From NCBI GenBank assembly GCA_903813345.2, contig CAIIXF020000002.1, positions 24,504,455 through 24,568,454 of the forward strand: a DNA stretch of 64,000 nt, read 5' to 3'. This DNA is from Owenia fusiformis (taxonomy: Eukaryota; Annelida; Polychaeta; Sabellida; Oweniidae). A program made the translations under genes and the position numbers. Below are positions 16,261-64,000 of this stretch, in pieces. Under the pieces are notes generated by a model that was not told the origin of the DNA, searched no databases, and was given only the letters and a program-made list of their open reading frames with translations. How positions within the stretch are numbered: the first letter of the stretch is position 1; the number at the start of each line of letters is the position of its first letter.

Positions 16261-16784
16261 CAAAGCCAAAAAGTGGGCCAAATTTTAAAAAGATTAAGGC
16301 TTTAGTTATGATAACGTTACAGTACTTAGCCCAAGGACTTAGCCTACAAGTATTTATTACAGGTCGTATAGACCATTGTTGCTTGATTTATAGCAAAACA
16401 TTGACTTGTCACATCTCAGAAGACCTAACATATTTCACCATACCTAGCCTTGCTCAAGTCAGTATTTTTTACTTATCTGATTTTGAATTATAGAAATTGG
16501 GAAAATAAGTAAAAGAGACCGACTTGGACAAGGCTAACCATACCGCCGTGCGCCTATCTATTCAACAATGAAATAGTAAACTTTTTCTCGAAAAAATAAA
16601 TCGTCGAGATTTGTTGAATTTTCTAGCAGAAATTGACTGCTCCCCATCCGTCCCATTTTTACAGTCGGCGGGCGTGCTGTATAACAATCGATTAGATTCA
16701 ATTTAGACTAGATTGTTGACTTTGGATTGATTAATTTTATTAAGATTCTTTATTAAAAGGTGGCAGTCTAGGCTAGTCAACTTT

Positions 16785-24779: not shown

Positions 24780-26011
24780 TTCTCTACCCCAAAAAATATA
24801 TGTTTGGGGTTGGGAGGAAGGAGTTATAGACGGATTCGTTTTTGATTTAAGATTATGGTATTTTAAATGATTTTGCAAGCCCATTACAATAAAATATTTC
24901 CAAATCTAGCATTATTACTACATAAAGCCACTGCATATTCCTTCAATTGTGAACTATAAATATCAAGGTATTACAATTACAAGAAAAAATGCTCAGAAGA
25001 GAGTATTTTATCCTAATGAATAAATCAATAAAATGACAAAAATAAAATATACCATAGCTGAAAAGACTGAATATACATGGGTATCATATGATAAAGTTAG
25101 TTCATTGTACTTGATTATAGCTAGGATGAAGAATAAAACACTAACATATTTTTTTACCAGAAACACGCAGTTCTGTCGGTTGATATTGTTTAGTGGACAT
25201 TTTTATTTTTGTTGGTATCACTCGCCTTTCTCCGAGAAATATTATCACTTGAGACTACTTCGTAAATTCCTAAAACGCTTTCCAATAACTTCATTTTACT
25301 CCATTAAAAGAAAGTAAATAAGGGGGAGGGGGCATGGTCTTGAAGCAAGACTAGGTACCCATCTTTTGATCATATACTGACACGTTGTCACAATTCTCTC
25401 AGGTTACAAGTTAAACAAGCGTATGATGATATTATGCATTCTGGGCGGGCCTTTCCCACTGAGAAGAATAACAACTCAAGTGTGGGCATTATATTGTATG
25501 GACTTCATAATGACCCTCTAAAAGAGCGTATAATGACCGTACTAAGGTCAACCACAGACCCCCATTGTGTCTTGACAAAACAGTGCCATCACCTATTTGG
25601 TCATCAGCATATGAAATGCCCATTAGCCTCGGAAATCTTTGAAGATAAGGAATTACGTCAGGAGCATTATGGCCTCTGATTGGCCGAGTCGATCAGGTTT
25701 TGTTTATCAACTATTTGATATTGTTATAATTTGATCAGAGGCACCGCTCCTATGTCACCTAAGTCCAACTTGAGCCCAGTTATATTGACGATCCACGAAG
25801 ACAAGACACGTTGGAGAAAGTAAGGATATTTTGCAAAAATAAAGAAAAACATTAATTAAAAAGGAGACGGTGTTCATATTTGTAAAGTAGATCCTCTAGA
25901 AACGGACGTCCACGTGGTGACAGGTTCTCGACCAGGATTTAGCAAGAGCTGAAGAGTAAGAGTCGTGTCAAGTGGTTCATAGGGCGAGAGTCGGGCCATA
26001 AAGTTATAAAC
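24780..26011. other. Upstream region of Cdx
   Basis: No repeat was recognised. It holds an isolated 81-codon open frame (25434-25679) with no known similarity. It should contain the Cdx 5' UTR and promoter. An in-frame stop (25940-25942) precedes the chosen Cdx start. Confidence 0.4.
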
Positions 26012-26399
26012 ATGGTACAAGAGTTTGGGGAGACATTGCACTACACGGCGGGTACACGACAACCAACAACAATGTCGCTAAATCCCTTCCTTACAACGCA
26101 GCAACAGGGCGGCTACCCTCAAGACTTCGGACCAGCGTTTCAGATCTCCCCGATGGAGAGCCAAATGCAACAGCAGTGGGGTATGTACGCTGGGTCGAGA
26201 TCAGCCGCTGGGCTCGAGGAATGGCAACAAGCGTTCGCTGCCCAGGCGCAGAACGCCGGAGCATACGCTGCTCATTTTAACCAAACTGGACATCCCGCGC
26301 CGATGTCCGCATCCGTGAATACCACATCGCCAAGGCAACAGAACCGTGCTCCATTCGACTGGATGAAGCGTCAGACGTACGCAGCACAACCAGCGGCAG
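26012..26399 (+). CDS. Cdx: Cdx coding exon 1 (N-terminus, hexapeptide)
   Basis: 388 bases encoding residues 1-129 plus the first base of Gly130; donor GTATTA. The open frame reads on into the intron but becomes low-complexity. Markedly GC-richer than its surroundings. The start ATG has the context aaacATGG. Confidence 0.88.
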
Positions 26400-29300: not shown

Positions 29301-32300
29301 ATATGAGTGGGGACATAACCAGTTTATTTTTAAAATCATATTCTCGACAACTGAATGGAACAGCAGGTATAAATTCCCATGGAGGATCATTCCAAGAATA
29401 TGAGATAAGTACTTATTGTTAATTACATGTCAACAAGATCAAAGGATTCCTAAATAGATTACGTAGCGGTACGAATATGTAGAGTATAGTCAGGTGTTTT
29501 CGTCTAGTGCATATTGGGAAGACTTCACTCCCCTTCTGTTGTTCACCGTCGTAAAGATAACGCTCTTATAACTTCGCCGTATCTAATTAGATTACGTTAA
29601 TTGCTGATAATGGACATTGATACATGGAGTATTATTGTTTTATTGGACACTGTATATGTGATAATATAAGATTATCTGCAAGTGACATGACATATGATAC
29701 ATTCGCAACATAGCGCGTTCTGAAAAGTAAACATTTTACCTGGTTGCAAGTTTCATGATCTCCAATCATAGGTCAATTTCTTTTATTCATTTGCAAGGAG
29801 AGTAAAAGAGAGAATCAATGTGCTTGGAGAATGTGAATTTTTGAACATTGATACAAGGGGTTTGTCTTAGAATTCCAATGTTTCAGGCTTTCACGGTGAA
29901 AATCTCACTGACATGCGCTACAAGTAGCCATTTTTAATACTTATGTCATACTTTTCCATTGAATCAGCGAGAGTATATTTTTTGCCAATTTTCAACTTAT
30001 CTTTTTTTCAATTTTGATATTTTTAGAAAGAAAGGTTTACCTCAGAGTATATTGAATTGATGTTTAAAGATCATATAAACATTTGCGAATGCTCAACAAA
30101 CAATTTTAATGTCACACAACTTTAGTTGTACAATATAATGTCTGGACAACAAGGAATAACTGGAATCTGACAGAAAGTACATTATTTGATTAACTATCCT
30201 ATAGAACTAAATGTAAATATACTATTACTTATTTTTTCACCCGTATATTTGATATATTCTACCTTAAATACACAATACTAAAAATAGAATATACAAACAT
30301 TCTTGAACGACAAAAATGATGAACGTTGGTGTTTTATCTCATTAAATAGTATACTATGTCACATAATTTTTATCCCTACGTAAACAGAACTCAAACTAAA
30401 AGGTGTGACACTGACAGAGCACTCCAATGGCGCAGATTAACTGCTCTTACTAAGACAAAGTATACGTAGACACCAAAATAAACTATAAGGTATAAACCAA
30501 TTCAAGATAACGAGCATATTCCTGCCCTAATTAAAATGATATTAATTTATATTAATTAGTTTCATATAAACGTTAAAAGTGCAATGATTTAAAAATAAGA
30601 TCGATCGAGTCACTTTCCCGTTGCAAAATGTCAATGTGGGAATTTAAAAGTTTTGAAACAATTTTCAAAATCATGTCAATGTTTCCTTTACAATTCTAAT
30701 TGTATTCCCTCTAAAAATGAATTCAGATATCTGGTAAAATATAGAAGTTATTGAAGACCTCAGATGTAGAAACGTCCAAATTCATAAGAGTTGAAAAGCG
30801 GACGTCGCCTTTTTCAAAGCTTTTGCCAGATGGAAATAGTCTTAGAAATAAGGAGTATCCTGATATAAAGCCAGAGCGGTTGGAGTTTTTGAAGATAGAC
30901 ATGGCATTGATATAACTGCAAAATAAGTACAAAAATAAAATAACTATTAAAAGCTAAAATAATACGGTATTCGTTTACCACTTTGACTTTCAATTATGAA
31001 CTTCATATCTTGGAAATTCCAAGATGAGCAAGAATACGGAAGATGTATTTTAATAATTAGTTAGATTCCACAAAAAGGAATTTGATGAATCCTTCGTTCG
31101 GCATTTACTTCATCGTTCGTTTTTTCATGTATTTGCAGGAAAAACCCGAACGAAAGACAAGTACAGAGTTGTGTACAGTGATCATCAGAGACTAGAGCTT
31201 GAGAAAGAGTTCCACTACAGTAGATATATCACTATACGTCGTAAAGCAGAACTAGCACAGGCGCTTAGTCTTTCCGAACGACAGGTAAGAGTCATTCTGA
31301 TACTCATAGCATCTTTTTGTTTCACCTTTTGTTTCAGGGCTGAGAAGAAATGAGATGACATGGTTTATCATGATGGGTAAGAGTCGTTTTAGCATCAAAA
31401 CATAGTTACAATTTTAATAAATAAACATTGATATTTTATAAAAAATTTATCGATGTGATGAGGGAAATCGGAATGAGGCATTGAATGGTGCATTCATCAA
31501 AACTGATTCACCTTTACTCTTCGTTTTAGAAATTTTCGGAGATTTTTTATTTTTTACTATTTAGTATTATTTAAAAACGGTGACTTATTTTGTGTAGTTG
31601 ATTGGTTGATTATTGTTATTGATATACATACCCAAATCAAGTCAAGGATGCGGAATGTGACTTCTTAACATTTTATTTGAAAATCGAAAAAAGAATACCC
31701 TGCGTGCAGAGTCTAGTTAGTTAAACTTTTAAGAAGTGAAGTCAAACGAATGCAAAGGGTAAAAAGAGAACCCATATTTCTTAATTCCAAGTTCCCCGAT
31801 TCAATGGATTTCTTTTACGCTTCAGCATTACACATGACCTAATAAAATCCAGCTTTTGGGATTGTACAGTACATTTTTATCAACCAATTAAAACATAATT
31901 ATATGATGATTGTTATGCAGTTGAAAGCAGGAATGATTTTTATGTATTTTACAAATATTTTGGTTGTGGTACCTATTTCTCTAGTGCCATTAATTAAAAT
32001 TAAGGCAAATGGTATAAGGCACACACTAGATCAGAATTAATTATCAAGTGTGTTTATATATTACTATATATTTCTTATAACTATGTTTAAGACCAAGTAG
32101 GGCTATTTGTTTATACAAATGTTTAAACAATGAAAAAAATCAAATATATAAAAAATAATACATGTTTGACAAAATTATATTATTTGACGAAAGATATAGG
32201 TTTATGTTGGCGTTTACCGAATATTCATTGACAAATTATTCAATATTTGATGTTCTATATTTTCAGGTAAAAATATGGTTCCAGAATCGCAGAGCCAAAG

Positions 32301-32434
32301 AACGTAAATGTAACAAAAAGAAGGATGAGCAAAATTCTATCTTGGGCAAAGAAGACTCAGAACTAATTGTCTCAGAACATTTAACGCAGGAACATGTGCA
32401 TCAGGCCCTAAGTGCCCAACAACACGTGGTATAA
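26012..32434 (+). CDS. Cdx: Cdx (caudal-type ParaHox homeobox protein), complete
   Basis: A homeodomain transcription factor that, across bilaterians, patterns the posterior body and hindgut. Three exons, 26012-26399, 31139-31284 and 32267-32434, join in phase to give 233 residues. Residues 113-120 (APFDWMKR) form the caudal-type hexapeptide that contacts PBC partners. The homeodomain spans about 135-194 and reads [34 protein letters not shown], then [14 protein letters not shown], diagnostic of Cdx, with Gln50 and Asn51. The second intron splits it between positions 44 and 45, a classic caudal-family site. The N-terminus is Gln/Ala-rich. Only about 39 residues follow the homeodomain, so the protein is short beside vertebrate Cdx (about 260-310). 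An upstream in-frame stop supports this start, though Met21 is an alternative. Confidence 0.96.
26400..28755 (+). other. Cdx intron 1, left part
   Basis: AT-rich intron sequence with no clear repeat or exon. Several short plus-strand open frames here lack family features or splice signals. Confidence 0.5.
28756..28830. mobile_element. 75-bp mini-MITE, copy 2, in Cdx intron 1
   Basis: Begins TACCCTGCGTGCAGAG and ends GCAAAGGGTA, with the exact 9-bp duplication TTAAACTCC on both sides (28747-28755, 28831-28839). This is the cleanest copy and defines the family boundaries. Confidence 0.8.
28840..30720 (+). other. Cdx intron 1, right part
   Basis: AT-rich intron sequence, nothing recognised until an antisense exon-like frame at 30723-30917. 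Confidence 0.4.
31139..31284 (+). CDS. Cdx: Cdx coding exon 2 (homeodomain helices 1-2)
   Basis: 146 bases between acceptor TATTTGCAG and donor GTAAGA, residues 131-178. It starts with the Cdx-specific [12 protein letters not shown] arm and ends at Gln44 of the homeodomain. Confidence 0.97.
31696..31761. mobile_element. 66-bp mini-MITE, copy 3, in Cdx intron 2
   Basis: TACCCTGCGTGCAGAGTCTA to GCAAAGGGTA. The flanks match at 8 of 9 bases, but they are A-rich, so that duplication is weaker evidence than for copy 2. Confidence 0.7.
32267..32434 (+). CDS. Cdx: Cdx coding exon 3 (homeodomain helix 3, C-terminus)
   Basis: 168 bases including the TAA, residues 179-233. Acceptor ATATTTTCAG. It carries the recognition helix [14 protein letters not shown], a basic KKK patch and an acidic, Gln/His-rich tail ending HVV. 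Confidence 0.97.
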   Translation, partial: VKIWFQNRRAKERKCNKKKDEQNSILGKEDSELIVSEHLTQEHVHQALSAQQHVV

Positions 32435-35967: not shown

Positions 35968-36576
35968 TTATAACCTGTTGGCATCAATTACGCCATTGTC
36001 GTCGTCAGTCATTGCGGCATTGCTATGCTCGCTGCCTGACTTAGCGATGCCATTGCCCTCAACGTGATTCATATTGTCTTTAGTGTCAAGAGGACTGAAT
36101 TCAAGACCAACAGCCTTGGTTTTTTCTTCCGTTGTAGGGGGTTTCGAGAAACAGCGAAAAATGTCATATTTCTTATTGACGTGCCACCTCGTGAATATTG
36201 CATTTGTGAGGTATGATACAGAGATTAAAGTTATAAGAGTCACTGCGGATGCAAACGTACGGAATGGGAATAATTGTAGTTGCTTTTCTTCATCATACCA
36301 GGGATATTTCAATATCACCGGTAGGTTGATGATGGATTCTCCGCCGAGGATCCTTAGAGTCGCCCCGACAATATACGATGCAGCCGAACCGTAGGTGTTC
36401 GCAAATCCAACGTAAACAGCGCATATCAACTGCGGTAGGACGATGACGAACACTAAATCGGCAGATACGACGAACAATCCATAGACTGTTGGAACGAAGA
36501 TTCCAATGATTGTTGCGAAGATCCCACATACTAGGATGCTGCAACGCAGGGCCCAAATTTGTTCCCTTTCTGAGGC
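35968..36576 (-). CDS. SLC5A7: SLC5A7 coding exon 9 (last helices and tail)
   Basis: 609 bases including TAA, residues 367-568. It encodes [40 protein letters not shown] and FPFRTFAS, then a cytoplasmic tail. The tail is polar and Asp/Asn-rich and diverges from human; the human tail motifs for endocytosis are not obvious. Confidence 0.95.
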   Translation of the reverse strand, partial: ASEREQIWALRCSILVCGIFATIIGIFVPTVYGLFVVSADLVFVIVLPQLICAVYVGFANTYGSAASYIVGATLRILGGESIINLPVILKYPWYDEEKQLQLFPFRTFASAVTLITLISVSYLTNAIFTRWHVNKKYDIFRCFSKPPTTEEKTKAVGLEFSPLDTKDNMNHVEGNGIAKSGSEHSNAAMTDDDNGVIDANRL

Positions 36577-39500
36577 CTAAAATGTAAGTTTGACATTTGA
36601 CAGATTGAAAGTTATAGCTGCTTCGGGGATCAGACTGCGGGGATTCGCACGCGAAACATGTGAAGTGATGGTCGATGGAAGTAAGGAACGATGGCTCGAT
36701 ATTTAACTATGAGACTAGCATATAACATAAAAAAATACTGACTGTGGTTTTGCCATACTTACTGTTCTTCGAATAACCGTTTTGTAAATATTCCGAGTGA
36801 ACATTGTGCTGGCGGAAAGAACCGAGGAGTCGGCCGACGACATCACTGCTGCGCTAACTGCCCCGAGTCCTGGAAAGAATAGGATTAATTACCGAAATTT
36901 ATTTCAAGTTTGACATTTAAAGGTTCAAAAAGTATATATTGATGATCAAGGAGGATATTTTTAATCTCCAAACAATTTTATAATGCTGATTTCTGTGGCA
37001 AAGAACGCACGAATGAACTGCAATGATATTTCTCACGATATCGACGACAACAGTGAAAATGTTGTAATCGTCTGACATTATAACTGACTATCAGTGGCTA
37101 ACAAATATTTTGATCGCTTCTTGTGTGTTCTGAAATTATTTCTTTCTAAAAAATTGAAATTCTGAATTGGATCATGGAAAAAATGGCGGCTATTTTGAAT
37201 TTTGTTATCACGACATGACTCCAGATATGGCAAAATATCGGTGGAGCCAATCATCCTCTTTGTTGCTGATGTCATTTCGAGTTTTTATACCCAGTATACA
37301 CAGTTTATAAAATCAGGTATTTTTTTATTCCTTATCTTATTATTTGATCGCGAAATGGTTCTGAAGGATCAATTTTTATTTATTGCTCTCGTCAACTATC
37401 ACAGTCTCCCTTGATTAATAAAGTAATTTAGTCATGTATAATAAGATTACCCTACAAGTTGACAGAAATACCTATGAAGGAGACCCAAGTAGGACAGAGA
37501 TACTGTAAAACAAGGGGAAGAACGTTCTTTTGATCATCAGCTGGTATAGGAACGGGACGCCCTTCTCTGAAGTACTTCGTGTCCGTCCAGTCTGAAATTA
37601 AACATTTCATGTAATCGTTTTTTAATTACAGCGTACGACAATTTTATAGGGCCTAGATGGATGTATTCATTCGATCTGTTATTCTGTACAAAATATGATA
37701 TGAGTTTTTTCATATTTTCATACAACATGCATAATTTGTAGTTGTTAAAGTACGGAAAGTGTACTGATTTTTTGGGTGAAATGCCAAATATTTGAGCAGT
37801 CGTGTATACCACCATGTACTATCATATATGCAGACGACTTAATTAAAGTAAATGATGAGAAATAATGAAAATAAACAAAAACTGACTCGCGGAATATGCC
37901 ACAGCCCCTATTAGTACAGCTGGGGTAGCAAGAACGAAGGCACATAATGAAGCCACGATCATAAAGAACTGGGCGGTTTTGGCAGTCCTTGCAGATAACA
38001 CCCTTTGGAACAGCACCTGGAAAACAAGTACTGTATTCAAACTACCAGGGTTGCTGAATAGCTTTGAAATCTCGTTGAAGTCTCGTTTTAATGAGATTTC
38101 AAGGCATCTTCATTTTTGACCATTTAAGACCAACAAAACATTTCTGATTGTTCAAATTGACAAGCAATTGTTTGGGTAACTTGAACATCGTTCAGCTAAA
38201 AAAATAGTCTTGGAACAGGAAGGGCCTCGGCGCATTAGTCGCAAAACTATAATCTGCAATCCCACTGTCTCCAGGCCCGTAGCCAGGAGTTCAATGTGTT
38301 CGAGCAAACCAAAAATTCTTTCAAAATCATGCAGTTTTTCACCATTCTGAGCACTTTTTAAGTGATTTTGGCCATTTTTGGACCAAAATTGTCAAAAGTG
38401 AACACCACCTGGAATTTTCCAAAAAGTGAACCCCCTTGGCAAATCCTGGCTACGGGCTTGGTCTCTTTCGGGTAACTATATCTCTTTCGGGAGACGAAAT
38501 CAGAACTTACTTGCCAAGGTACTCCACCAAGCATGGTAAGAAGGAAGACATCCAGCCAAGCCCCAGCTTCATATGGCTCTACTTTCCCAATCCAATCTGT
38601 GGCTGTCGTCCCTATCTCTTGTACAGCTTCATGATGGGCAGCGAATGGCACGGCCATGTACTACACGTATTTGGAAAATACATTTGTGATTCTTAATCAG
38701 GCCTTATTTGGAATATTTGGAGACGAAATACAAGGTAAACAAGTCAAGTTGCAAAGATAAGTGGGGTTGTAAATATATTTACGTATTCTCAGCAGTCAAA
38801 ACGCCGAATAAAATGTCAAAATTAAAAAAATCGCACATTGGTTATTAGTGTACACACACAAGGCTACATACCAAACCAATCAAAACACAGAAGAACTGGA
38901 GTACATCTGTATACGCAACAGAATATAGTCCACCGAACAAGGTGTACAATATAGCAATACAAGCTGACACTACAACTGAAACTTTACTGTCAAGGCCAAT
39001 TAACACAGACAAGGTTCCTCCTGAAATTGAACATAATGTAATTTGAATCATATACTATTGACGAAGATCTATACTTGTGCCATGTGTCATAAAATTGGTT
39101 CGAAATGTGGTTGTCCGGCTTAGTATTTAGTAATGCTTTGACCTTAAGTGATCCAAAAAAGAGCTATCATCGCAAAAGTTTGTTTAATATACTTTGAAAA
39201 CATCAGAATTTGAAATACATTGACAATATACAATGCGTATCAAAAAAACGCAACAGATTGTTATCTCGGAAAAGCACAAAACCAATGATAACAGCATTAA
39301 TTTCATTCAATGCACCATAAAGCCATGTGTCTCCTTTTTACAATGATATATCATTCATTGATATTTGGTCATGGTTGGGCGAGTAATCATTCCATTTGCA
39401 AAGTAGGCCAAAATTAGCTTTTGCCCAAGTTATAAACATCGCAAAAGTCAGTGTACGGAGCCTGATGCAATATTGGAAAAAAACATAAAACCAATGCTGA

Positions 39501-42500
39501 CTGCATCCTTTTAATTCAATGTTCCAAAAAGCCAAATTACTCCTCTTTGCAATGGAATATCATTCATTCACAGGGAGTCATGGCTGGCCGAATAATCATT
39601 AATTTTGCAAAGTGGGGCAAAATTCAGCTCGGACCCAAGTTTTAAAAATTGCAAAAGCCAGTACAAAGGGAATAAGGACTATTGGAAGAAGGTATGACAG
39701 GTGTGGCATAGACAGTAAAGTGTCCATACTCATACTCTTGCAAGAATACATCCTATACCTCTCCAAATTGCCACCACTTCCTTGCACATAAAGATGCGCT
39801 CATCTGCCCACGTCATGCATGGTTCAGCCCTGAGTCATCTGTGGGTTAAAGCAGAGAAAAGCAGCCCATGGGCAATTCTTTCTCGAGGTTTTGCAATATC
39901 TGGTGGAGGAATTGTGAGCACAGATGCTCCTGAGATAGCTCCAAAAGAAAAAGTCACAACAATTCAATTCAGAGGAACTTCCATTGGCACTTAGCCCTTG
40001 CACTGATTTTTGCAATATCTAAAACTTGGCCAAGAGCCGATTTTGACCCACTGTGTAAGCGGAAGGATTTCTCACCCAACCATTATCACATGTGAATGAT
40101 AGACATATCATCGGAAAGAGGAGAGATGTGGCTTTATGATACATTAAATGAAATTGATGTAGTCATCATTAGTTTTGTGATTTTACAAGATAACTACTTG
40201 TTGCGTTTTTTTGATACGCCCTGTATATATATTACGAACTACATTACATGTATTAGTATGAGAAGAACACTTGATGATTTCATCTAAGCCTCACAGACTT
40301 CGAAATCGGATTATGGAACATCGGAATTTGAATGTAGTTTGCCGATATTATGCCCAGATAACGTTCAATTATAAGATTAGCTCAGAATTGCGATGGATTT
40401 TCAAGTGCTTACAAAAGTAGGTGAATGCTCTTGATCTTAAATGAAGCAACGTTACCGACATTTACCGGAATTTCTGTAACACAAACCTAATGCTCCCAGA
40501 ATTCCCGCGCTCCAAGACACATCAGCAAGAATTGTGGGTATCGTGATGAAACCTCCCATCACGAGGCCGAATTTCTTTTGGATTGGATCCAGCATTGTAA
40601 CGTAACCTTCACTGCGCATCTTCTTTGCGAAAAACAAAGCCACTGAAAGTTGATTTAGCATTTTACCCACAGAATTTTTAGATATGTTTTCATCATATTA
40701 CAATCTCTTCAATATTTTTGGAGTTACCACGATCATCTTTCAACATTTTCGACAGCCTATCATACATGTGATTGTAACAATTACTGTATACTAAAATAAC
40801 ATTTAACTTTCTCAAATCATAATTTTGCTCTTCTGATATTTTGTCTATTGAAGTAAATGACGTGGAAAATTTTCAACGTAACATAACTTACCAACAAGCA
40901 AACTAAGTGCGAATCCGTACGTAGCTTGACACCACACTAACCCCCGTGAATACGTCATTTCCGCTGTTCCATTTAGAAAGGCCCCGCCTACTACAGTAGC
41001 TGAAATCCGATAATAGAGAGTTAAGGCTTAAACTGTTTTTCACAACCTAAACGTGAACGTGAACGGAAAGTACATGAATCAGTATAGGAATGTGTCGAGG
41101 CGCATACTTTTGAATGCGCTTCACGCGCTTTAATAGACTACTTCAGATGCCCATTCAGTTTCAGAGTTTCGTGTTTAAAACGGGAAATTTACAGTTTCAC
41201 GTTGGTGTGAACGGGAATCATTTAGACTCATGATTATTGAATACTATGCTTTCAATTTTGATTTCTAGGAAGATGATGTATGACATGCATGTTTTAGCTC
41301 AAATAAACGATTATTTAAGCCAGAAAGCTACATGCAATGTATATGAGCAATTTATACGAGGGGTGATCAATAAGTAATGGACGCTTTTTTACACGGATGC
41401 TTTTTATAGACCAATACCTTCGATTTTCTCACCAGTGATACATCATTCAATTATCCATCAACTCTGAAGATTTGAAAACAAAACATGTAATATATTATGA
41501 TATATCTTTATTTCCGTGAAGGATGTGTAGGTACCCCGGGACTGACATCGACGTCAAACATTCTGAAGCTATTTTAGCTTGTTTAGCATGCAACGCAGTT
41601 GAATGCAGGCTGAACAAAACAAACCATTATGGTCATGAATTATTCTATTTTATTATGCCATAGTTGATTTTGAATATTTTATCATCACTATGTGGTATTC
41701 ATGCCACATTCATTCTACAGGGCCCTCTACATAGGTTCCATCAAGTGCTACATGTACACAATTCCTCATCCTCTTAACTCAAAATTGTGAGACAAGGCTG
41801 AATCAATTCTCTGACATGGTAGCAAGATGCAGGTATGCAGGTATTTCAAACAACACAACACTTGTTGCACTTAAAAAAAAGTTTAAATCTAACTGAAATT
41901 TGCCATCATGGCTAAAAACTGAATATGTGACGTAAATGTCGGTCCCGGGGTACCTGTACTCCCTTCACAGAAATAAGGATATATCAACATGTATTATATA
42001 TTTTGTCTTCAAATCTTCAGAATTGATAGATAATTGAATGATGTATCACTGGTAAGAAAATCAAAGGGATTGGTCCATAAAAAGTATCTGTGTAAAAAAG
42101 CGTCCATTACTTATTGAACACCCCTCGTACGTACACGTTGTCAAAATCGAGATTTGTTCTGGACCAAATTTGACAGCTGAATGATTTTTACCACTTCCGA
42201 GACTCAATAAAGGCTCCGGTCTTTATAATACTTACACTCCCCTACATAAGTTTGGCAACCTTAGCTCCCCCATTGAACTACGTGTTAAAAAGCCTCTTTA
42301 CGTTTGAATTTTGATTCACTTATTCTGCGATGAAATAAAAAATTATAATATTGATGGAAACGTAACTTGACTTTCTTTCCAATACCTTCAAATTTTCCCA
42401 ATTTTTTCCTCGTTTACTATAGGTCGAAAATTGATGATGATGAATTTTTGAAAATCGTCATTCCCATGTAAACCAATGGGAAATTGTGGGTTCGGGGCAA

Positions 42501-48639: not shown

Positions 48640-49740
48640 TCACCACCTAAAACAATTTGGTCAATTTAAAGCAAGTTGGAAAATACCTTTTGACCTTAAG
48701 AAGGTTTTCGAAGATTTGAGCTTTTGGGATCTTGTAGATGAAGCAAGTTGAAAACAGACCTTTTTGACCTTTTTTGACATTGAGAAGGTCATTAAAGGTC
48801 AAATGTCAAATCTAAAGTCAAATTTGAATTTCTGAGAACATGTAGATGATTTTGAAAAAATAAATTAGTCAATTTGAAGCAAGTTGAAAAAAGACCTTTT
48901 TTGACCTTGAGAAGGTCATTGAAGGTCAAATGTCAAATCTAAAGTCAAATCTAAAGTCATATTTGAATTTCTGAGAACATGTAGATGATTTTGAAAAAAA
49001 AATTTTAGTCAATTTGAAGCAAGATGAAAAAATACCTTTTTGAACTTTTTTGACATTGAGAAGGTCATTGAAGGTCAAATGTCAAATCTAAAGTCAGATT
49101 TGAATTTCTGAGAAAATGTAGATGATTTTGAAAAAAAATTTAGTCAATTTGAAGCAAGTTGAAAAAAGACCTTTTTGACCTTTTTTGACTTTGAGAAGGT
49201 CATTGAAGGTCAAATGTCAAGTCTTAAGTCAAATCTAAAGTCAGATTTGAATGTCTGAGAACACGTAGATGATTTTGAAAATTTTTTTTAGTCAATTTGA
49301 AGCAAGTTGAATACAGACCTTTTTGACCTTTTTTGACCTTGAGAAGGTCATTGAAGGTCAAATGTTCAATCTTAAGTCAAATCTTAAGTCAGATTTGAAT
49401 TTCTGAGAACACGTAGATGATTTTGAAATTTTTTTTTAGTCAATTTGAAGCAAGTTGAAAACAGACCTTTTTGACCTCTTTTGACCTTGAGAAGGTCATT
49501 GAAGGTCAAATGTCAAATCAAAAGTCAGATTTGAAGGTCAAATGTCAAATCTAAAGTCAGATTTGAATTTCTGAGAACATGTAGATGATTTTGAAAAAAA
49601 AATTAGTCAATGTGAAGCAAGTTGAAAAAAGACCTTTTTGACCTTGAGAAGGTCATTGAAGGTCAAATGTCAAATCTAAAGTCAGATTTGAACTTCTGAG
49701 AACATGTAGATGATTTAGAAAAAAATGAAGTCAGTCTAAA
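48640..49740. repeat. Tandem array of about 135-165 bp units rich in AGGTCA half-sites
   Basis: Seven to eight units, marked by GTCAATTTGAAGCAAGTTGA at about 48867, 49006, 49140, 49289, 49437 and 49603 and by diverged starts near 48659 and 48735. Each full unit holds TGACCT-TTTT-TGACCT, then TGAGA, then AGGTCA-TTGA-AGGTCA (for example 49324-49360), followed by AATGTCAAATCTAAAGTCA and GAATTTCTGAGAACATGTAG. Spacing varies by small indels. Confidence 0.9.
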
Positions 49741-54007: not shown

Positions 54008-54730
54008 CAGTGCGTATAAAAAAAACTCAACTGATTGTTATCTCGGAAAAGTACAAAACCAGTGTTAACAGCATTGATTTCATTCAATGCACCGTAAAGC
54101 CACGTGTCTCCTTTTTACAATGATATATCATTCATTGATATTTGGTCATGGTTGGGCGAGTAATCATTCCATTTGCAAAGTGCGCCAAAATTAGCTTTTG
54201 GCCAAGTTATAAAAATCGCAAAAGTCAGTGTACGGAGCCTGATGCAATATTGGAAGAAAACATAAAACCAATGCTGATTGCATCCTTTTCATTCAATGTA
54301 CCAAAAAGCCGGATTACTCCTCTTTGCAATGGAATATCATTCATTCACAGGGAATCATGGCTGGCCGAATAATCATTGATTTTGCAAAGTGGGGCAAAAT
54401 TCAGGTCGGACCCAAGTTTTAAACATTGCAAAAGTCAGTACAACGGGCAAAGGGGCTATTGGAAGAAGGTGTCAAGTCACAAGAATTCAAGTCAAGGGAA
54501 CTTCCATTGGCACTTAGCCCTTGCACTGATTTTTTCAATATCTAAAACTTAGCCAAGCGCCGATTTTGACCCACTGTGCAAATGGAAGGATTTCTCACCC
54601 AACCATCAGCAGTATATCATTGCAAAGAGGAGAGACGTGGCTTTGTGGTACATTGAATGAAATTGATGTAGTCATCACTAGTTTTGTGATTTTACGAGAT
54701 AACTACTTGTTGCGTTTTTTATACGCCCTA
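54008..54730. mobile_element. TA-flanked inverted-repeat element, copy 2
   Basis: Same family as 39231-40223 (CAGTGCGTAT end, shared interior words GGTCATGGTTGGGCGAGTAA and CACTTAGCCCTTGCACTGA), shorter by about 270 bp. TA on both sides. Confidence 0.7.
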
Positions 54731-54739
54731 TAGGGGTGC

Positions 54740-56685
54740 GTACCCCTGTATGTAGTTTATAGCGATTCACTAGTTTATGGCAATTGAAGAGATGTTTTGA
54801 CAATAATACAGTATAATCACTTACTTTATGAAATAATAAAATATTTGTAATGTTGAATATGCTATTTTAACTACTATATGTTTATCTATGTTATATTCTT
54901 CAAATGTTTTGTGGACATACGGTATTTGGCAGTTGATGTTCGGCAGTCGGCGTCTACAGAAGAATACATCAATGTCACACAGTCTGCACAGGATTATCAT
55001 TCGCTCGAAAAGTGTGTCATTTTGCCATTCACAAACAACCCGACTCCGAGGGCGCTAAAAGGGACGGCGACGGGGGCTAGTAGAGGCCTATCACCCGCCG
55101 TAGGTAAAGCCCCGTTCTGAAAGACTCGGAGACCCGTACGCCGTAATTCTGATTGATTCCCTAGCTATGCACCATCATTCAAATACAAATAGTGTGCTCC
55201 TTTTTCTTTTTGTGATATATTAATGAGTTTTTAATGAAAATTTGTGAAAATATGAAGTGCAAAAGCAAAATAATGAAATGTAGAAATAAAATGTATTATA
55301 ACACTTTCACATAAACCATCACAGTTGGTCCATAGATATATTTAAGGAATAAATGACGATAGGCCATTCAATATGGTGAAATTCGGCACGAGTCGTACAA
55401 AGCACGAACCGAAGGTGGATGCATTTGTACAGAAATTCTGTCCAACTTGTGCATTTGGTCAGAGAGTTTATTACTTGAATCAGAGTAAATCAGAGACAAT
55501 AATGTTGTTGCAATCCTGGTATAGTAGTACAGTGCGTAGTCGTACCCATGCCTTAGCAGTTTGTCCAATGCACCTAATAACTACGAACGTTTAGATGATG
55601 ATTTAGTAAGAGAACAAGGACTGCACAGAGTTGAAGAAGGGCGCAGAGAAGGAACTCACTCAATTGAAGGCCCAAATAAATATTAGGACTTGTATTCACA
55701 AAATGAAAAGGGCCGTGGAAGGTATCACTTCTTTCCAAAGGAAAATCTATTTTTGTTTTATAGTTTATTGTTTTTTTCATAATTTCAATGTATAATGATA
55801 ATTAGTGTTAAAAACAGTAAAATGATTTTGATGTCAAATTTTAACTGTTTACCTGATGAAGTTTTAGCAATAAAACGAAAATTTGTATTTCAAAATCACC
55901 ATAATCTTAATCATAAAAATTATTACAATGTGATGTAGTGTTTGATCAGTGTTCGTTTTAGTGTATTTGGCGTTAATGCTAGAATTATGGATACCCTTTT
56001 CTATGAAATGTATGGTCTCAATGTTAAGCTATCTATAAGCGTAAAGTGGATGAGTCTGCTGCAGTCAACAAGAGACTTAACGTAAGACATGTGATTCAGC
56101 AAAAAAAACTTTCCCCGTATGACAAAATTCGAAATTGTTGTTTTTTAATTCACTTGGCTTTGTCTTAATCAACATCTTCATTTACTCTCTCTGCACTTAA
56201 TGAAATAAACGTTGTTCTTCCACAACGGTGTTGGTAATGGACACAATTCTTAATAGAGTAGAATCAGTGTGTGGCGAATTAGGGATTCCAGGCTCACCAT
56301 GTGAGTCAAAACCACACTTCTGGTTCAAATGTTTTTGTTTCGTTTGTATCTTATTCTTTGTATTTCACAATGAAAATATTTGCCAATGTGAGCTCCCACA
56401 TAGATAGATAGAACGTGACTGTTTGTCTAACCCTGAATTTTTCCATCCCTTGCTGTGCTATATTCCCGAGGGTATATTACATTCATGTATTCAGGGCAGT
56501 TAAAGCTTCCAATGATCGTCTACATTTGAAGCCATTTCTCATCAAAAGAAAATGCTACTTCCTCACTGCAATTTATGTTAAGCAGTTCTAAAAAGTTGTT
56601 AAATATCGTGGAGTCATACTATGATATTGAAAAAGAATGACCTTCTCTTTTCAATAGTAGTTAAGCATTTTCATGTCAACATTCT
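54740..56685. other. Intergenic with a GC-rich patch
   Basis: A GC-rich stretch (55030-55140) and an exact AATTCGGCACGAG (55380-55392) stand out from the AT-rich background. No gene could be supported. Confidence 0.35.
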
Positions 56686-56689
56686 TAAA

Positions 56690-57000
56690 AATGTTAACCT
56701 TCGCAGCACCAACAATTTGGAATCAATTACCAAACAAGATTCAATCTTCTCAAAGTGTTCCCATCATGAAAAGAGAGCTGAAAAAGTACTTTGTTAATAA
56801 TTGAATACCTCTATGACACACCTTTGAGCTACCACCCATTATAAGCATTTGCACACAAAACAGATCCCCCTCTGTTTCTATGTAGGCAACTTACTACCCT
56901 GTCGGAAATATACACAATACGTGTCATCCGCTCATTGTCTGTATTTTAATACATAGCTTACTGAATAAATAAATAAAAATAAAATAAAACTAATTGTTTG
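56690..57000 (+). mobile_element. 3' end of a non-LTR retrotransposon, 5'-truncated
   Basis: A frame reading FAAPTIWNQLPNKI then MKRELKKYFVNN and a stop matches the conserved last residues (W-N-x-L-P) of CR1/L2/jockey-type reverse transcriptase ORFs. An AT-rich 3' UTR and an AATAAATAAAAATAAAATAA tail follow. The rest of the element is absent. Confidence 0.7.
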
Positions 57001-57358
57001 GAACTATTTCGTCCGTTTTGATTCGAGGTACTAAGGGATGTTTAACCATTTTAACTGACATCTATTTTTTGATGACATTTCTAAAATACTTGCCATGCCT
57101 TTCGATTAAAAGTTACTGAACTGGGTAAAAGGGGATTTACAAAGGAAAAATATATCTAGACTATTGGGCACTTCTCACTTTCGTACTTTAACAATCGAAG
57201 TATGTAAAACTTTTGCCCTAAAATATCAACTAAGGAAAGTATCCAAAAAAGATTTAGTCTCAAGAATACGCTCTTTTATCAGAATCTTCAATCAAAATTT
57301 CGGATTCAGATGGACGAGGTCTATCTTTTGAAATGAAAAAATGTTATTTATTAAAAAG

Positions 57359-57571
57359 CACTGGCGGATAGAGGAAGACATGGGGTCCACCCCCTTTTGA
57401 GGGCCTAGAAATAAATTTAGGGCCCAAAAATTGTTTGGTCATAATTTTGCCTTTAGAATTATCAAAAATGGGCCTTAAATGTTCAAATTTTGAGCCCAAT
57501 TTTGGTTTAAGGGCCCAAACTTTAGTCACGGAAAATATTTTGCCCATTCGATATTTGGGCACCCGCCAGCG
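57359..57571. repeat. 213-bp inverted-end repeat rich in GGGCC words
   Basis: Begins CACTGGCGGAT and ends ACCCGCCAGC. The interior repeats GGGCCTAGAAAT, GGGCCCAAA and GGGCCTTAAAT words at near-regular spacing. Confidence 0.5.
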
Positions 57572-57579
57572 AAAAACGT

Positions 57580-58320
57580 TTAGTCTCAAACAGATCTTTG
57601 ATTATACATGGTATGTAGATGAGACAGTGATCAACATAAAATGTAAAATATTTAAAAAACACAAAAACAACATAAAATATGATATTTCCAAAAGTAGTCA
57701 ACGTTCTTCAAAATAACATTTTACTGTCAACACATGCATACATCCGGCATCTAAAATATTCAATCCACGCATAAATCCAGACAGCATGACGGTCTAATGC
57801 TTGCCTATGTCTAATACATCAAGCATCTAATAGAAAATGTTCAGTTTTAAAGAGAGATTTAATATGAAAGTGTACTCATCTAAAAACACCCCGTATTCTC
57901 TCTAGATTTTCCCTTTAAAAAGCATTTAATTAATTCCACAGGGAATTCTAGTGGAGCAAGGCAAGTGGACGTGTGATAGGGGACATAGCCTGCCTTCCTA
58001 GAAAGGTAATAGAATTATGTCCACCCATGCATTGTTGAAGAGATTGTATCAAATACATTTGCTATACAAGTCATGTAGTTTTAATCTTTTAAAGTAATAA
58101 CATAACTAAACTGGCCTACACCCGAATGGTTATTTTACAAAACCAATTTGCCTTTGTTTTTGACATACAAAACGACCAATATAAAAAATATAATAAATAT
58201 AATAGATGATGTTTTACCTCTAACATAAATCGACCTTATTTTAAATATCCTGTATCATTATTTGACAACAGCTTGTTCTAGCCAGTATTAAATGCTTAGA
58301 ACCCATTATTCAAATATAAT
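57580..58320. other. Intergenic, upstream of the cysteine-rich peptide gene
   Basis: AT-rich. One exon-like stretch near 57943-58003 has splice-like ends but only an 18-19 codon frame; not called. Confidence 0.35.
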
Positions 58321-58323
58321 TTG

Positions 58324-58334
58324 TATAATAAATA
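58324..58334 (+). promoter_or_regulatory. TATA-like box of the cysteine-rich peptide gene
   Basis: TATAATAAATA lies about 85-95 bases before the proposed ATG, leaving room for a short 5' UTR. Motif only. Confidence 0.35.
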
Positions 58335-58418
58335 CCTCGAATACGTACGTGGTGTCATTTCACCGACCGTATTTTGAATACTTCACAGTATACATCGACA
58401 AGGACACGACACTCTAAG

Positions 58419-58426
58419 ATGAATAT
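58419..58426 (+). CDS. Cysteine-rich peptide, coding exon 1 (proposed)
   Basis: Eight coding bases (ATGAATAT) directly before GTAAGTAC. Two leftover bases join the C at 61290 to make Ile3 and open the signal peptide. No in-frame ATG exists at the 5' side of exon 2, so an upstream start exon is required. Confidence 0.45.
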
Positions 58427-61400
58427 GTAAGTACTATTAGTCAATTTTAAAATTGTAGTCCTTACGTTTCTTTATTGAAACAGCGTCAGTTTATCATTGA
58501 TATTGCTATGATATTATTTTTATCATTAGAATTCTCGACACTGAGACATTATTTGGGAGAATTAAAAATAATTTTCATCCATTTCTGCATCCGTTATATG
58601 TTTGAATCCGTAATAACGTCCCCATTTTTGCTTTTGCTACAGCGTTGTTGATATTACAGACAAATGTATAAATCATATATCATTGGAAAGACAAATAAAT
58701 TTCCAACAAAATGATATTCAATTTAATCAATATAAATGAGTATTTGTCTTAAAATATCATTTTGATGACCATAGGGTCAACGTCATGATTTGCCAATTGT
58801 TGAATACATAATGCTAAGAACTGACCGACAAATATAATCCGCCCTATGTCAGCTTTGGGGATATACTGTAATTCTAATTATAGAAGGTCAAAATTGCTGA
58901 TTTATGTATCAAATGAAAGAAAATATATTTAAAAATGCAATATGGTTGGAAGTAATGCCTATATAAGGCTAAAATCATCATGAAATGGGTAAAAACGATG
59001 TTGTACTTCTATAACTAATATCTGACATTTAAAATCGCAGATTTCAATGCATCTAACAATTTAACTTTATAACGAATAGCAATTCATGAAAATAGGTTCC
59101 ACGATTATTTTAAAACTATAAAATGACTTTCAAACAATAAAACTCAACTCCAATACCTTTTCTTTGTAAAAGCCTAAAAGTGTTGATTAAGCTTACTCGA
59201 GTCTCTAGCCATTTCTTGGCTAGAAGTAATTTCATCTGAAACACCGTGAACCATTTGAAGAAAGTTGGCCGTCGTGTTATAAAGGAGCACATAGGTTATC
59301 GCAAACAATTTCAAACAATTCTAACTTGAATTATGAATACTTTCTGATTATGAACATGGGTGTATCTTTTAGAAAAGTATATATACAGTGCTGATATATA
59401 ATAATAAAAGGTGCGTTTTCAAACTAAACAGAGTGCTCCTACCAAAATGAATTTGTCTGAATTTGTCATGAGACTCTTATCTAATAGATAGAATGCACAA
59501 ATAGAACAAAAGTTTTGCTATTATAGGTGAAAAGTTCTCTTAAAAATTCGAAGTGATCTTACCTGTTAATTCTGTACTTGGTCCGCCATGTTGGAGGAAG
59601 TTACACCGAAATGCAAACTCCATTAAACGAAACGAAATCATTAGAAAAAGCCATGGCACACATTGTAAAAATGTGCAGCAAAGTTTAACCCAATCAGATT
59701 ATTTGATTATTTTGCGCACATGAATTATTTGCTTCTGAGCACTTACAAGCTAACCACAATAAACAAACCTGGCAGAGACTACCCTTAGCCTACTTCATTT
59801 TATGAAGCCTTGGAGACACTCATTTTGGTAAATATGATTTACTGTGTATACTTTTCTGCAGTTTGTGGGAGTTTGGGACATTAAATGTTAAAATTCAAGA
59901 AAATATGCCAATTATTCGACTTATCAATTATTTTGTATCAGCACTATAATGATAATTTAGTTAATCAGACCCTAAGTGATATTGAAGAGGCAATGGACCA
60001 ATCAACCTACTTTTTCAAAATGTTGACCTAATTTTCACCAAAAATGCAACCTTTTATTATATTGTTGAATGCATGATTAGAATTTGCTTTGAGACATGTT
60101 CTATTTCCTAAGAGGAAAAGTTGATTGTTCCAGGGACTTTAAAGATATTGAATTTGGATGACCAAAATGAACTGAAACCAATGGATAGCATGAGATTTCT
60201 CAATGGAAAAATAACATGGGGAACATTTATCTTAAAGCAATCAAGTTTTTCTTTCAAGAAATATTTGATACACTAAAATAAAAATAGTAATGCATTAAAC
60301 AATGTAAAAAATGATTGCATTTTCAGTGAAAATGAGGTTAAACATCTTTGAAAAGTGTGTTGATGGGTTGATTGCTAGTTAAATATCTCCGAATTTGTTT
60401 GACTTTATTATTACTGTATATAATTTTCTTTGAGATAATGAATGGCTAAAAGATAAACCTGTCTTCATTGTCAGAAAATAGTCACAAACCAAGATATAAC
60501 CGTCTGAAATTGTTTGCGATAACCTACGTGCTCCTTTATTAAATATTTTAAAAATCGCCAGACAAATAAATCATGAATAAAATGGAACTGGCTGGGCTCC
60601 TTGATGAGATATTGCATGATTTCGTCTTAAATTAAAATAAACGGCTCCAAGAAGAATTCGAAAACTGGACGAAATGTCGTTATTGTCTGACATTAGGAAC
60701 TGGCTGTAAATTCTAAGTAAGCGATCCAGAAGATGTGAACTAATACATTGATCACTTCATGTGTGTTTTGGAATTTTTGGTGAGGTAATAAGACCAAAAC
60801 TCGCAATTCAAATTGTCATGTGGAAAAATGGCGAACATTTGATTTCAAATTTTCTGATTACGACATGACCCGTATACAGCAGTAAAAACATGCAGGGATT
60901 ATCTTTGGACGAAGGCCACGATAAAGTGGCCTTAGAAGAGGGTAAGATTAAGCAATCCCAATATTATGCAATAAGCACAAAACATAGAGAAGATTCTTGT
61001 TTTCGACTGTTACTACCTCATGATACGGAAAATACCATAGAGTCACCAATAGACATTCATATTTTGTGAATCATACATAATTTTGTTGGAAATAGAATGA
61101 TCTTTCCAATGATATATATAATTTATAGATATTTCCAACATATCAGCAAAATATTACAAAAATAAAAATGTGGACGTTTTTAGGCCCAACCTGTATATTA
61201 TAGATTTTTTTAATAAATTATATTGGAGCTATATATCAACTTCAATTTCTAATAAATGATATTCATATTATATTATATCTGATCTGCAGCTGCCATATCG
61301 TGATTGTGATAGCCTTACTGCTCACCGCGGCCATGGAAACACGTGGATTTGATCGCAGCAATAAAAAAGAACAGGTACATACATGCACGTTTTGCTAATG

Positions 61401-62098
61401 TTGTTGGGAAAATGAACGATTGTGTAACACGCATAAAAAAGGAACCGCTCAAACATGTACGAATTCTTTTGGACATGATGTGTAATTTTCAAACTTTCGG
61501 ACGTTCAGTGACAGACTTTTAAGGATTTAGATATATGGTCAGGGAAAACAGACTTTATAGGTGTCAAGGGTTTAGAATCATGGTTAGAATAGATAATTTA
61601 AAGTTATTGTTAAGAATGTACAGATTTTAATACACCGTTTAGACAAATACATGAATATCTGCCAGATGGTATTGAAAACATTGGTCGCCATGTGTACTAT
61701 TAAATCAACATAAACTTAAATTATACATGATTATATACTGGCAATTGTAGAAGGACATGCGTTCTACTGAAGCATCAGTTAAAAACTGAGGTATGCATGT
61801 AGAAATGTCCAACTTTTCTCAGCTCGTGATTTCAAAAGCCAACCACACGCGAAATAAATGGCCACCACACTTACTAGTATTGTTGATTTTCTATTGTTGA
61901 TTTTTATTTTAAAAGTGTAAAGGGAAATCTTGCTGTCAACTGAAGGAGGGTGATTTGTGTAGTGTAAATAATGGTGACACAATTCGTGATTATGGCTGTT
62001 GCAAAGAGGAAGGAATCGAGTGCGCGTTCCGCAAACAGGATGGAAATATTATTTATAATCGCTGTCTTGCAGTGGGCGAAGTATTTACTCAGAACTAA
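58419..62098 (+). CDS. Secreted eight-cysteine peptide precursor, 91 residues, family not recognised
   Basis: Three exons, 58419-58426, 61290-61374 and 61916-62098, join in phase. Residues 1-17 form a signal peptide (MNICH, a hydrophobic run, TAA). A short polar segment follows (about 18-29) and ends in Lys-Lys, a possible processing site. The cysteine domain occupies 32-91, with Cys at 32, 37, 38, 46, 59, 60, 67 and 81: C-x4-CC-x7-C-x12-CC-x6-C-x13-C. This fits four disulfides and a small extracellular ligand, inhibitor or defence peptide. The spacing of the last cysteines and the LKEGDLC and GIEC words faintly recall colipase, Dickkopf and prokineticin C-terminal halves, but this is inference. 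AATAAA follows the stop by 20 bases, then a GT-rich stretch, supporting a real gene end. Exon 1 is the least certain: it was chosen for its ATG, strong donor and matching phase. Confidence 0.65.
59280..60540. mobile_element. About 1.26-kb inverted-repeat element inside intron 1 of the peptide gene
   Basis: AGGTTATCGCAAACAATTTC near 59293 is inverted near 60506. Arms extend at least 130 bp (AAAGGAGCAC outermost, GTATCTTTTAG inward). No transposase was recognised. Confidence 0.7.
60640..60905. mobile_element. CAAGGAGGAT-family MITE, copy 3 (diverged ends)
   Basis: Interior words AAATGTCGTTATT, GTCTGACATTA, TGTGTTTTGGAATTTTT, AAAATGGCG and ACGACATGACC follow the order of the copies at 13596 and 36947. 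Its terminal repeats are decayed. Confidence 0.6.
61290..61374 (+). CDS. Cysteine-rich peptide, coding exon 2 (signal peptide)
   Basis: 85 bases between acceptor TGATCTGCAG and donor GTACAT, ending in phase 0. It encodes IVIVIALLLTAA followed by METRG and a Lys-rich end. Confidence 0.65.
61916..62098 (+). CDS. Cysteine-rich peptide, coding exon 3 (all domain cysteines)
   Basis: 183 bases including TAA, acceptor TTTTAAAAG. All eight domain cysteines are here. The frame is open exactly from the acceptor to the stop, and the exon is more GC-rich than its flanks. Confidence 0.75.
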   Translation, partial: CKGKSCCQLKEGDLCSVNNGDTIRDYGCCKEEGIECAFRKQDGNIIYNRCLAVGEVFTQN

Positions 62099-62117
62099 TA
62101 TGTTCAAAAAGTTTATC

Positions 62118-62123
62118 AATAAA
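62118..62123 (+). terminator. Polyadenylation signal of the cysteine-rich peptide gene
   Basis: AATAAA 20 bases after the stop codon, followed at about 62139 by TGGTGGTGTTT, a typical GT-rich downstream element. The predicted cleavage site is near 62140. Confidence 0.65.
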
Positions 62124-62159
62124 GTATCATACTGATTTTATGGTGGTGTTTAATTTTTT

Positions 62160-64000
62160 AGTATTTAAAAGTCTGTAACCTTAGTATGAAATATTTGAGT
62201 GAACAATTTACAAGTGAGCCAATCGGCTAAAAAATATGTCAATCGTATCTTTTTTGGTATATTCAACAAAACAAATTAATACAAAATCAAAATTTATTTC
62301 TGAATATTCCTCGCACAAAACTTTCTTTATCCTAATACGAAACAAGTTCAATGCTAGCTGTCCTAGATTCCTGTCGGGAATATTCAATTAATCTGCTACA
62401 ACAGACATTTATTGATGTAGCACAAACTGCAAACTCTAAAAGGTAGTGGTATTTTCACTCGGGCCATTATATGAACACACATACATGTTATTAATCAATA
62501 AAACACACGCCCGTTGTTTTCATTTAGAATAATGACAAATAAAAAGCAGTTGACAATGTACCATATAAAATAATATATTACATACAATATAAAATGATAT
62601 TACAAATATACAATGGTCACTCGTCGCTGAAGTTTTATATACATGTTTTTAAATTGTAATTATATTTTATACTTATTAAAGATATCATATACAGTGTTGA
62701 CCAGTTGACGGTGACACATTTATTAAATTATTCACTGTCTATTTTTGAAAGGTATTGTAGCGTATGACAATGAGTCTAGTTCCAAAAAGCACCATACGCA
62801 ATTTACGCATATATATATGTACTCATGACTCAATGAGTGATATTACCCCCATGCTTGAATTGTACGGACCATTTGAGACCCAACTTATGTCAAACGATTA
62901 ACCAATCTATTTACAGATTTACAGAAAGCTAGGTCATATCGCATTACGCAATAGTTTTATCAAAACGTCAATCAATTTAAATGGATACATTTTAACCAGC
63001 GGCATAAAGGCGTCTCATTGCACGTGTTTGCCTCATCATTTCACGCATGATTATTTGCAATGGTTGCGCGTACATAATATAGTAACCTCATATGCATACA
63101 AAGGACCAAAAATGTGTGTGTATCCTCTTTTATAATACTGTCCTTTCTCACTTAGACTACACTATTTACAAATATAAGAGTAATATATCAATACCCTAAT
63201 ATCACTTAACAGATACTTCTACCACGGCAGGTTTTCAGTGTTTTAAAGCATCAGCTCAGATTTCTATGTTATTTACATCTTTACATCCGCAGTGTTTCAT
63301 TTGACGCCTTTAACCCCTTGACTACCAGAGAATTGTGAATACTTTGCATAACGTCATAAAAATCAGATCTATAGGCAGTGACAAAATTGCAACAACATGC
63401 ACAGTTGTTTTACAAATATATTCCTTACAATCTCAAATATAATACCTCGAAAAGATCTTTGATATGTCATGAATTGGTGAAGTTATTAAGGATCCAAATG
63501 TCAAAATGGGGAAAAATGTGTAAATTCTCCAAAATAATACATATGGTAACCATCTCCATAAATGCATTATTGAAAAAATCGTTAGTTTTCTTCAGATACA
63601 GTATTCACAATTTTCGGAAAATGACATGACAAGGAATGATATGAGCCCAAACTATTCTTTGTTGAGACAATCATTGTCAGGAGTACTCGATCTTGGTATT
63701 CAATAGGTTAAACTCAGTGAAGGCAACACTGAACATTTACACGTTTCAAAACTGTCCACTTATAAAGTGAAATATGTTCCATTCTCTTTGACAAACTGCA
63801 TATTTGTCATACTTTAGCCTTTTAACGTCTTCGTATCACTATATATTCTATACAACGCTATAATAACTATCTACAGTCACGCTATCTATTTACAGATATA
63901 TTTACAAGAGTCAAGATTGCCAGATTTGCAATTTTTACTTCAATATGCCCTATAGGCTACTATGTCATCCGTATTTGTCGGAATAATGAATATGCTACAT
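62160..64000. other. Intergenic, nothing recognised
   Basis: AT-rich sequence to the right edge. No exon, repeat pair or RNA gene could be supported. Confidence 0.4.

What the first reader, a model, noticed from the sequence alone, without database searches (positions are those of the whole stretch)
58419..62140. Possible undescribed secreted eight-cysteine peptide gene
Three short exons join in phase into a 91-residue precursor. It has a clear signal peptide, a Lys-Lys site before the mature domain, and the framework C-x4-CC-x7-C-x12-CC-x6-C-x13-C. A polyadenylation signal and GT-rich element follow within 45 bases of the stop. I cannot assign a family. The layout fits a hormone-like ligand, protease inhibitor or defence peptide. 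The exons are too small for standard ORF calls.
Basis: partly seen in the sequence, partly recalled or inferred. Interest (0 to 1): 0.8.

Follow-up and report, generated by a model that had tools for sequence, protein, structure and literature searches.

The report
Probable orphan secreted cysteine-rich peptide gene
A small three-exon animal gene very probably makes a secreted peptide held together by eight cysteines, perhaps a knotted mini-protein, that matched no family in the collections searched; it looks real, but its function and relatives are unknown.

Summary
Exons 58419-58426, 61290-61374 and 61916-62098 join in phase into a 91-residue precursor with a signal-like hydrophobic start and exactly the stated framework, C-x4-CC-x7-C-x12-CC-x6-C-x13-C; AATAAA starts 20 bases after the stop. 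A relaxed form of the framework occurs once in the window and in 0 of 300 and 0 of 150 simulated windows. With thresholds set after seeing the gene, exon 2 is the only signal-like internal exon on either strand. Codon preference favours the proposed frame. The 8-base first exon is the least certain part. The window is animal DNA. Pfam, NCBIfam, PDB sequences, viral contigs and prokaryote contigs gave no credible relative, but they are poor collections for invertebrates. Colipase/Dickkopf/prokineticin and mussel CRP-I fail on cysteine number, spacing or architecture. The last six cysteines have inhibitor-cystine-knot order and a predicted C-terminal hairpin, but no fold match is significant. 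Best reading: an endogenous, knottin-like secreted peptide without known relatives. Probably real and uncharacterised, but of a common kind.

The parts
58324..58334 (+). TATA-like stretch upstream of exon 1, possible promoter element
   Evidence: seen by eye only; not tested
58419..58426 (+). proposed coding exon 1 (ATGAATAT), phase 2, donor GTAAGT
   Evidence: best of 6 candidate first exons; least certain part
58427..61289 (+). intron 1, 2863 nt, largely occupied by nested inverted-repeat elements
61290..61374 (+). exon 2: signal-like hydrophobic segment and short spacer ending in SNKKEQ
   Evidence: only exon of this type on either strand under the thresholds
61375..61915 (+). intron 2, 541 nt
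61916..62098 (+). exon 3: eight-cysteine domain, TAA stop included; upstream in-frame stop at 61910 requires splicing
61934..62065 (+). candidate cystine-knot core: six cysteines at precursor residues 38, 46, 59, 60, 67 and 81 (C37 could replace C38)
   Evidence: cysteine positions; fold inferred from order and from the hairpin predicted
62118..62123 (+). polyadenylation signal AATAAA
62140..62151 (+). GT-rich downstream element
   Evidence: seen directly

Best explanation
It is a functional, probably single-copy-in-this-region gene of an invertebrate animal for a small secreted disulfide-rich peptide. Shown by the sequence: an intact spliced frame, a hydrophobic N-terminus, one cysteine-rich exon, a polyadenylation signal. 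Inferred: the signal peptide is removed near residue 22 and the chain is exported; the last six cysteines (38 or 37, 46, 59, 60, 67, 81) form an inhibitor-cystine-knot core with the C-terminal hairpin IECAFRKQDGNIIYNRCLA, and C32 forms an extra bridge with C37 or C38; the stable, slightly acidic peptide (pI 4.9-6.4, net charge about -0.3 to -2.2) acts outside the cell by binding a protein target such as a channel, receptor or protease, rather than by cationic membrane lysis. Odds: real gene about 0.88; knottin-like fold given a real gene about 0.5; protein-binding regulator or inhibitor rather than direct antimicrobial, about 0.6. The confidence below is for a real gene of a secreted peptide with a knottin-like core.
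For: Framework intact and not reproduced in 450 simulated windows (300, 150). Exon 2 is the only signal-like internal exon on both strands, 541 nt upstream and in phase. Codon log-likelihood 0.6 in the proposed frame against -16.5 and -38.6 in the other two; 1.25% of 20000 random segments score as high. Last six cysteines in the order C-C-CC-C-C, as in knottin-like CRP-I peptides (PMC10138031, passages). AlphaFold2 without an alignment gives strands 34-42 and 45-52 in exon 3 (pLDDT 68.4) and 29-36 and 39-47 in the trimmed core (pLDDT 76.7), i.e. a hairpin carrying the fifth and sixth core cysteines. Among the 50 rows shown of 57 weak PDB matches of the trimmed core, 2h1z (a spider toxin, E 5.6) has the highest TM-scores (0.43 and 0.50) and 6xyh (sea anemone Ms11a-2, E 3.3) is rank 4. 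Net charge and pI.
Against: No fold match reaches E 0.001 in any of three searches, and none of the 50 rows shown of 308 for the full cysteine exon looks like a knottin to me. The model pLDDT is moderate and no alignment was possible. Disulfide pairing was not obtained. No homologue, so purifying selection is untested; no RNA. Loops 2 (12) and 5 (13) are longer than those of CRP-I. Two of the chance tests use criteria written after seeing the gene. Exon GC is only mildly raised (0.471 and 0.41; 6.2% and 13.7% of same-length segments reach it).
Confidence: 0.45

Rival explanations
1. A real secreted eight-cysteine peptide gene with a different, possibly new, disulfide fold (not a knottin), acting as hormone-like ligand, inhibitor or defence peptide.
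For: Same gene-level evidence. No significant fold match. The exact order C-CC-C-CC-C-C turned up once in the passages I opened, as a footnoted entry in the M-superfamily row of a Profundiconus table (PMC6891753), so it has no well-known class.
Against: Order and hairpin of the last six cysteines are what a knottin needs.
Confidence: 0.43
2. A decaying or never-expressed gene: the frame is open by chance or only recently lost.
For: No homologue or RNA to prove constraint; intron 1 is filled with mobile-element-like inverted repeats; the first exon rests on 8 bases.
Against: Splice sites, frame, cysteines and polyadenylation signal are all intact; exon-3 frame bias. Recent decay cannot be told apart from function in one genome.
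Confidence: 0.07
3. Chance: the three pieces are not a gene.
For: Cysteine-rich segments with at least 8 Cys and two CC appear in 11 of 150 simulated windows; 29 tandem-repeat rows and other repeats show that the window is repeat-rich.
Against: Framework absent from 450 simulated windows; signal-like exon in phase just upstream.
Confidence: 0.05

Closest known systems
Mussel CRP-I family (knottin-like, Mytilus; PMC10138031, passages seen)
   Same: Small secreted precursor, mature domain wholly in the last exon, cysteine order C-C-CC-C-C among its last six cysteines.
   Different: CRP-I spacing is C(X3-6)C(X1-7)CC(X3-4)C(X3-5)C; here it is C-x7-C-x12-CC-x6-C-x13-C plus two further cysteines. 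CRP-I uses KR or RR; here KK. CRP-I has a non-coding exon 1 and three coding exons; here three exons, all coding.
Inhibitor cystine knot peptides of venoms and body tissues (general class)
   Same: Order of six cysteines with a central CC; predicted C-terminal hairpin.
   Different: No significant sequence or fold match; two extra N-terminal cysteines; pairing unknown.
Prokineticin / colipase / Dickkopf (PMC6425005, passages seen)
   Same: Secreted and cysteine-rich. Protostome Dickkopf CRD-1 also has eight cysteines.
   Different: Colipase-type CRD-2 has ten conserved cysteines and Dickkopf has two cysteine-rich domains; here one domain with eight cysteines in 91 residues.
Cone-snail framework XX, C-CC-C-CC-C-C-C-C (PMC6471084, passages seen)
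   Same: Its first eight cysteines have the same order.
   Different: Ten cysteines; no sequence comparison was made.
Mytimycins (PMC8004829, passages seen)
   Same: Mussel secreted cysteine-rich peptides.
   Different: 10 to 14 cysteines in other arrays, and a C-terminal EF-hand extension; none here.

Membership tests
Inhibitor cystine knot (knottin) | six cysteines in order C-C-CC-C-C | tested here: met
   residues 38 (or 37), 46, 59, 60, 67, 81
Inhibitor cystine knot (knottin) | disulfides I-IV, II-V, III-VI with III-VI through the ring | not testable with these tools
   AlphaFold2 output gave no coordinates or pairing
Inhibitor cystine knot (knottin) | structural match to solved knottins | tested here: inconclusive
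   0 matches at E 0.001 or better; weak matches 2h1z and 6xyh for the trimmed core, none noticed in the 50 of 308 rows shown for the full exon
Mussel CRP-I | spacing C(X3-6)C(X1-7)CC(X3-4)C(X3-5)C | tested here: not met
   loops 7, 12, 6, 13
Mussel CRP-I | KR or RR cleavage site before the mature peptide | tested here: not met
   KK at residues 28-29
Colipase / prokineticin / Dickkopf CRD-2 | ten conserved cysteines | tested here: not met
   eight in the domain
Dickkopf | two cysteine-rich domains | tested here: not met
   one domain in a 91-residue precursor
Mytimycin | at least ten backbone cysteines and EF-hand extension | tested here: not met
   eight cysteines, stop nine residues after the last... 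see exon 3, ten residues follow C81,
Any Pfam-A family | score above the curated cut-off | tested here: not met
   only DUF3045, 13.1-14.8 bits against a cut-off of 27

The most novel reading that the evidence does not exclude
The gene founds an undescribed family of animal secreted peptides with its own eight-cysteine framework (C-x4-CC-x7-C-x12-CC-x6-C-x13-C), an elaborated cystine knot or a new disulfide fold, working as an endogenous signalling ligand or inhibitor rather than a venom or antimicrobial.
Probability: 0.3. Interest if true: 0.5.

Novelty: new variant of a known kind. Interest (0 to 1): 0.33.

Why it matters
Very short exons make such genes easy to miss in annotation, and each new disulfide framework is a candidate for an unknown ligand, inhibitor or defence molecule. 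If the gene is conserved, it would give a testable new peptide family. If it is restricted to one lineage, it is one more member of a large class of orphan cysteine-rich peptides.

Tried and rejected
Paralogues inside the window: tblastn found no second copy of exon 3 or exon 2; the best other hits had E 0.53 and 0.50. PDB by sequence: polyubiquitin at E down to 3.3e-11 is an artefact of many summed weak repeats (no single stretch passes); VEGF-A at E 0.56 and 0.37 is not credible. Pfam DUF3045 at E 0.032-0.11 is below its cut-off. Viral and prokaryote contigs: 13 and 30 pattern matches, none confirmed. Internal duplication: the two CC halves align, but 24.6% of 5000 shuffles do as well, so rejected. 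Fold searches: no significant match in PDB or the viral library. Rfam on 56000-64000: nothing. No tRNA in the window. Papers: listings only; passages in six papers. For the term C-CC-C-CC-C-C, 13 papers were listed; I opened passages in 4 of them and 9 were not opened. Two of the ten paper searches were not used. The species was not identified.

Full report
Observation. Joining 58419-58426, 61290-61374 and 61916-62098 gives a 91-residue precursor with cysteines at 4, 32, 37, 38, 46, 59, 60, 67 and 81; the last eight make the stated framework. Exon 3 cannot be read from its own start: an in-frame stop lies at 61910. Exon 2 upstream is open to 61201 but has no in-frame ATG, so a further 5' exon is needed if this frame is right. 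Of 6 candidate first exons (4 donor sites) between 56001 and 61200 with coding length 5 to 74 bases and a donor score above 1.0, the proposed one scores best, 1.78. It stays the weakest part because it is only 8 bases long.

Is it chance? A relaxed version of the framework occurs once in six frames of the window and not in 300 order-2 or 150 order-3 simulated windows. A looser property, at least 8 cysteines with two CC within 60 residues, occurs in 11 of 150 simulated windows, so the cysteine exon alone would be about a 7% event per window. The exon with a hydrophobic stretch followed by a polar tail, bounded by acceptor and strong donor and ending in phase, was found once on the two strands of the window, and it is exon 2. 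These criteria were written with the gene in view, so the numbers are guides, not probabilities. Codon preference trained on 481 codons of the window's own coding exons gives 0.6 for the proposed frame and -16.5 and -38.6 for the others; 1.25% of 20000 random segments reach 0.6. One training piece (32264-32434) held one stop, so a little non-coding sequence entered the training set. GC is only mildly raised in exons 2 and 3.

Surroundings. The window is animal DNA: caudal-type activation region and split homeodomain on the + strand at 26-32 kb, a high-affinity choline transporter exon at 35968-36576 on the - strand (E 1.8e-29 to solved CHT1; a sodium:solute symporter piece at 36742-36879), an MRP1-like ABC transporter exon at 211-519 on the - strand, and a reverse transcriptase fragment at 16772-17224. 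The species was not identified; a mollusc is my guess and comes from no call. Intron 1 of the peptide gene is mostly made of nested inverted repeats, outer arms 58611-58747 and 61045-61182, inner arms 59279-59372 and 60446-60539, which explains its length and shows that mobile elements landed there without touching the exons. A stretch similar to 60756-60876 lies at 13641-13760 (78%).

What it is. No Pfam family, no NCBIfam model, no credible PDB sequence, and no relative in viral or prokaryote contigs. No second copy of exon 2 or 3 in the window. These collections hold little invertebrate sequence, so 'no relative' is a weak statement about nature. AlphaFold2 without an alignment gave moderate models: exon 3 pLDDT 68.4 with strands 14-19, 34-42 and 45-52, trimmed core pLDDT 76.7 with strands 29-36 and 39-47. 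Foldseek found no significant PDB match for either (308 and 57 matches up to E 10, none at 0.001; 50 rows shown each). For the trimmed core the best TM-scores in the rows shown are to 2h1z, described there as a dual-target spider toxin, and rank 4 is 6xyh, a sea anemone peptide; a paper in the listing (PMC9866706, listing only) names Metridium senile peptides with a modified inhibitor cystine knot. The full-exon search showed nothing of the kind in its 50 rows. The viral library gave nothing significant. So the knottin reading rests on cysteine order plus a hairpin, and is inferred.

How it most likely works. Signal-directed export (hydropathy only), possible removal of a short spacer, oxidative folding into a compact disulfide-rich domain, extracellular binding to a protein target. 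The mature peptide is near neutral or acidic (pI 6.39 from residue 23, 4.93 from residue 30), which argues mildly against a cationic membrane-active antimicrobial and for a ligand or inhibitor. Lys-Lys at 28-29 may or may not be cleaved.

Comparison. Mussel CRP-I peptides are the closest described bivalve knottin-like family that I saw, but spacing, dibasic site and exon layout differ. Colipase-type domains have ten conserved cysteines, and Dickkopf has two domains. Mytimycins have 10-14 cysteines and an EF-hand. The cysteine order C-CC-C-CC-C-C was searched in papers: 13 listed; in the 4 opened, it was part of longer arrays in three and an exact eight-cysteine entry, footnoted, in the M-superfamily row of one table. 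Nine were not opened.

Verdict. A probable real gene for a secreted eight-cysteine peptide without a known family in what I could search. That is a sound finding but a common kind of finding in invertebrate genomes; its interest depends on conservation and expression, which could not be tested here.

Noticed in passing
window 58611-61182: Nested inverted repeats fill intron 1: outer arms about 75% and inner arms (59279-59372 / 60446-60539) 82% complementary, like one terminal-inverted-repeat element inserted in another.
   Followed up: partly
window 25943-32434 (+): Caudal/Cdx-type homeobox gene, homeodomain split between exons near 31311 and 32264.
   Followed up: partly
window 35968-36879 (-): High-affinity choline transporter (SLC5A7-like) exons close to the caudal gene.
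   Followed up: partly
window 39270-39687 and 54078-54467: Two 209-base-period tandem pairs with similar consensus, 15 kb apart.
   Followed up: no
window 48893-49527: 148-base tandem repeat, 4.4 copies, 87% matches.
   Followed up: no
window 56204-56404 (+): A second open stretch with 8 cysteines within 60 residues but no CC pair; simulated windows hold 0.37 such stretches on average, so probably chance.
   Followed up: no
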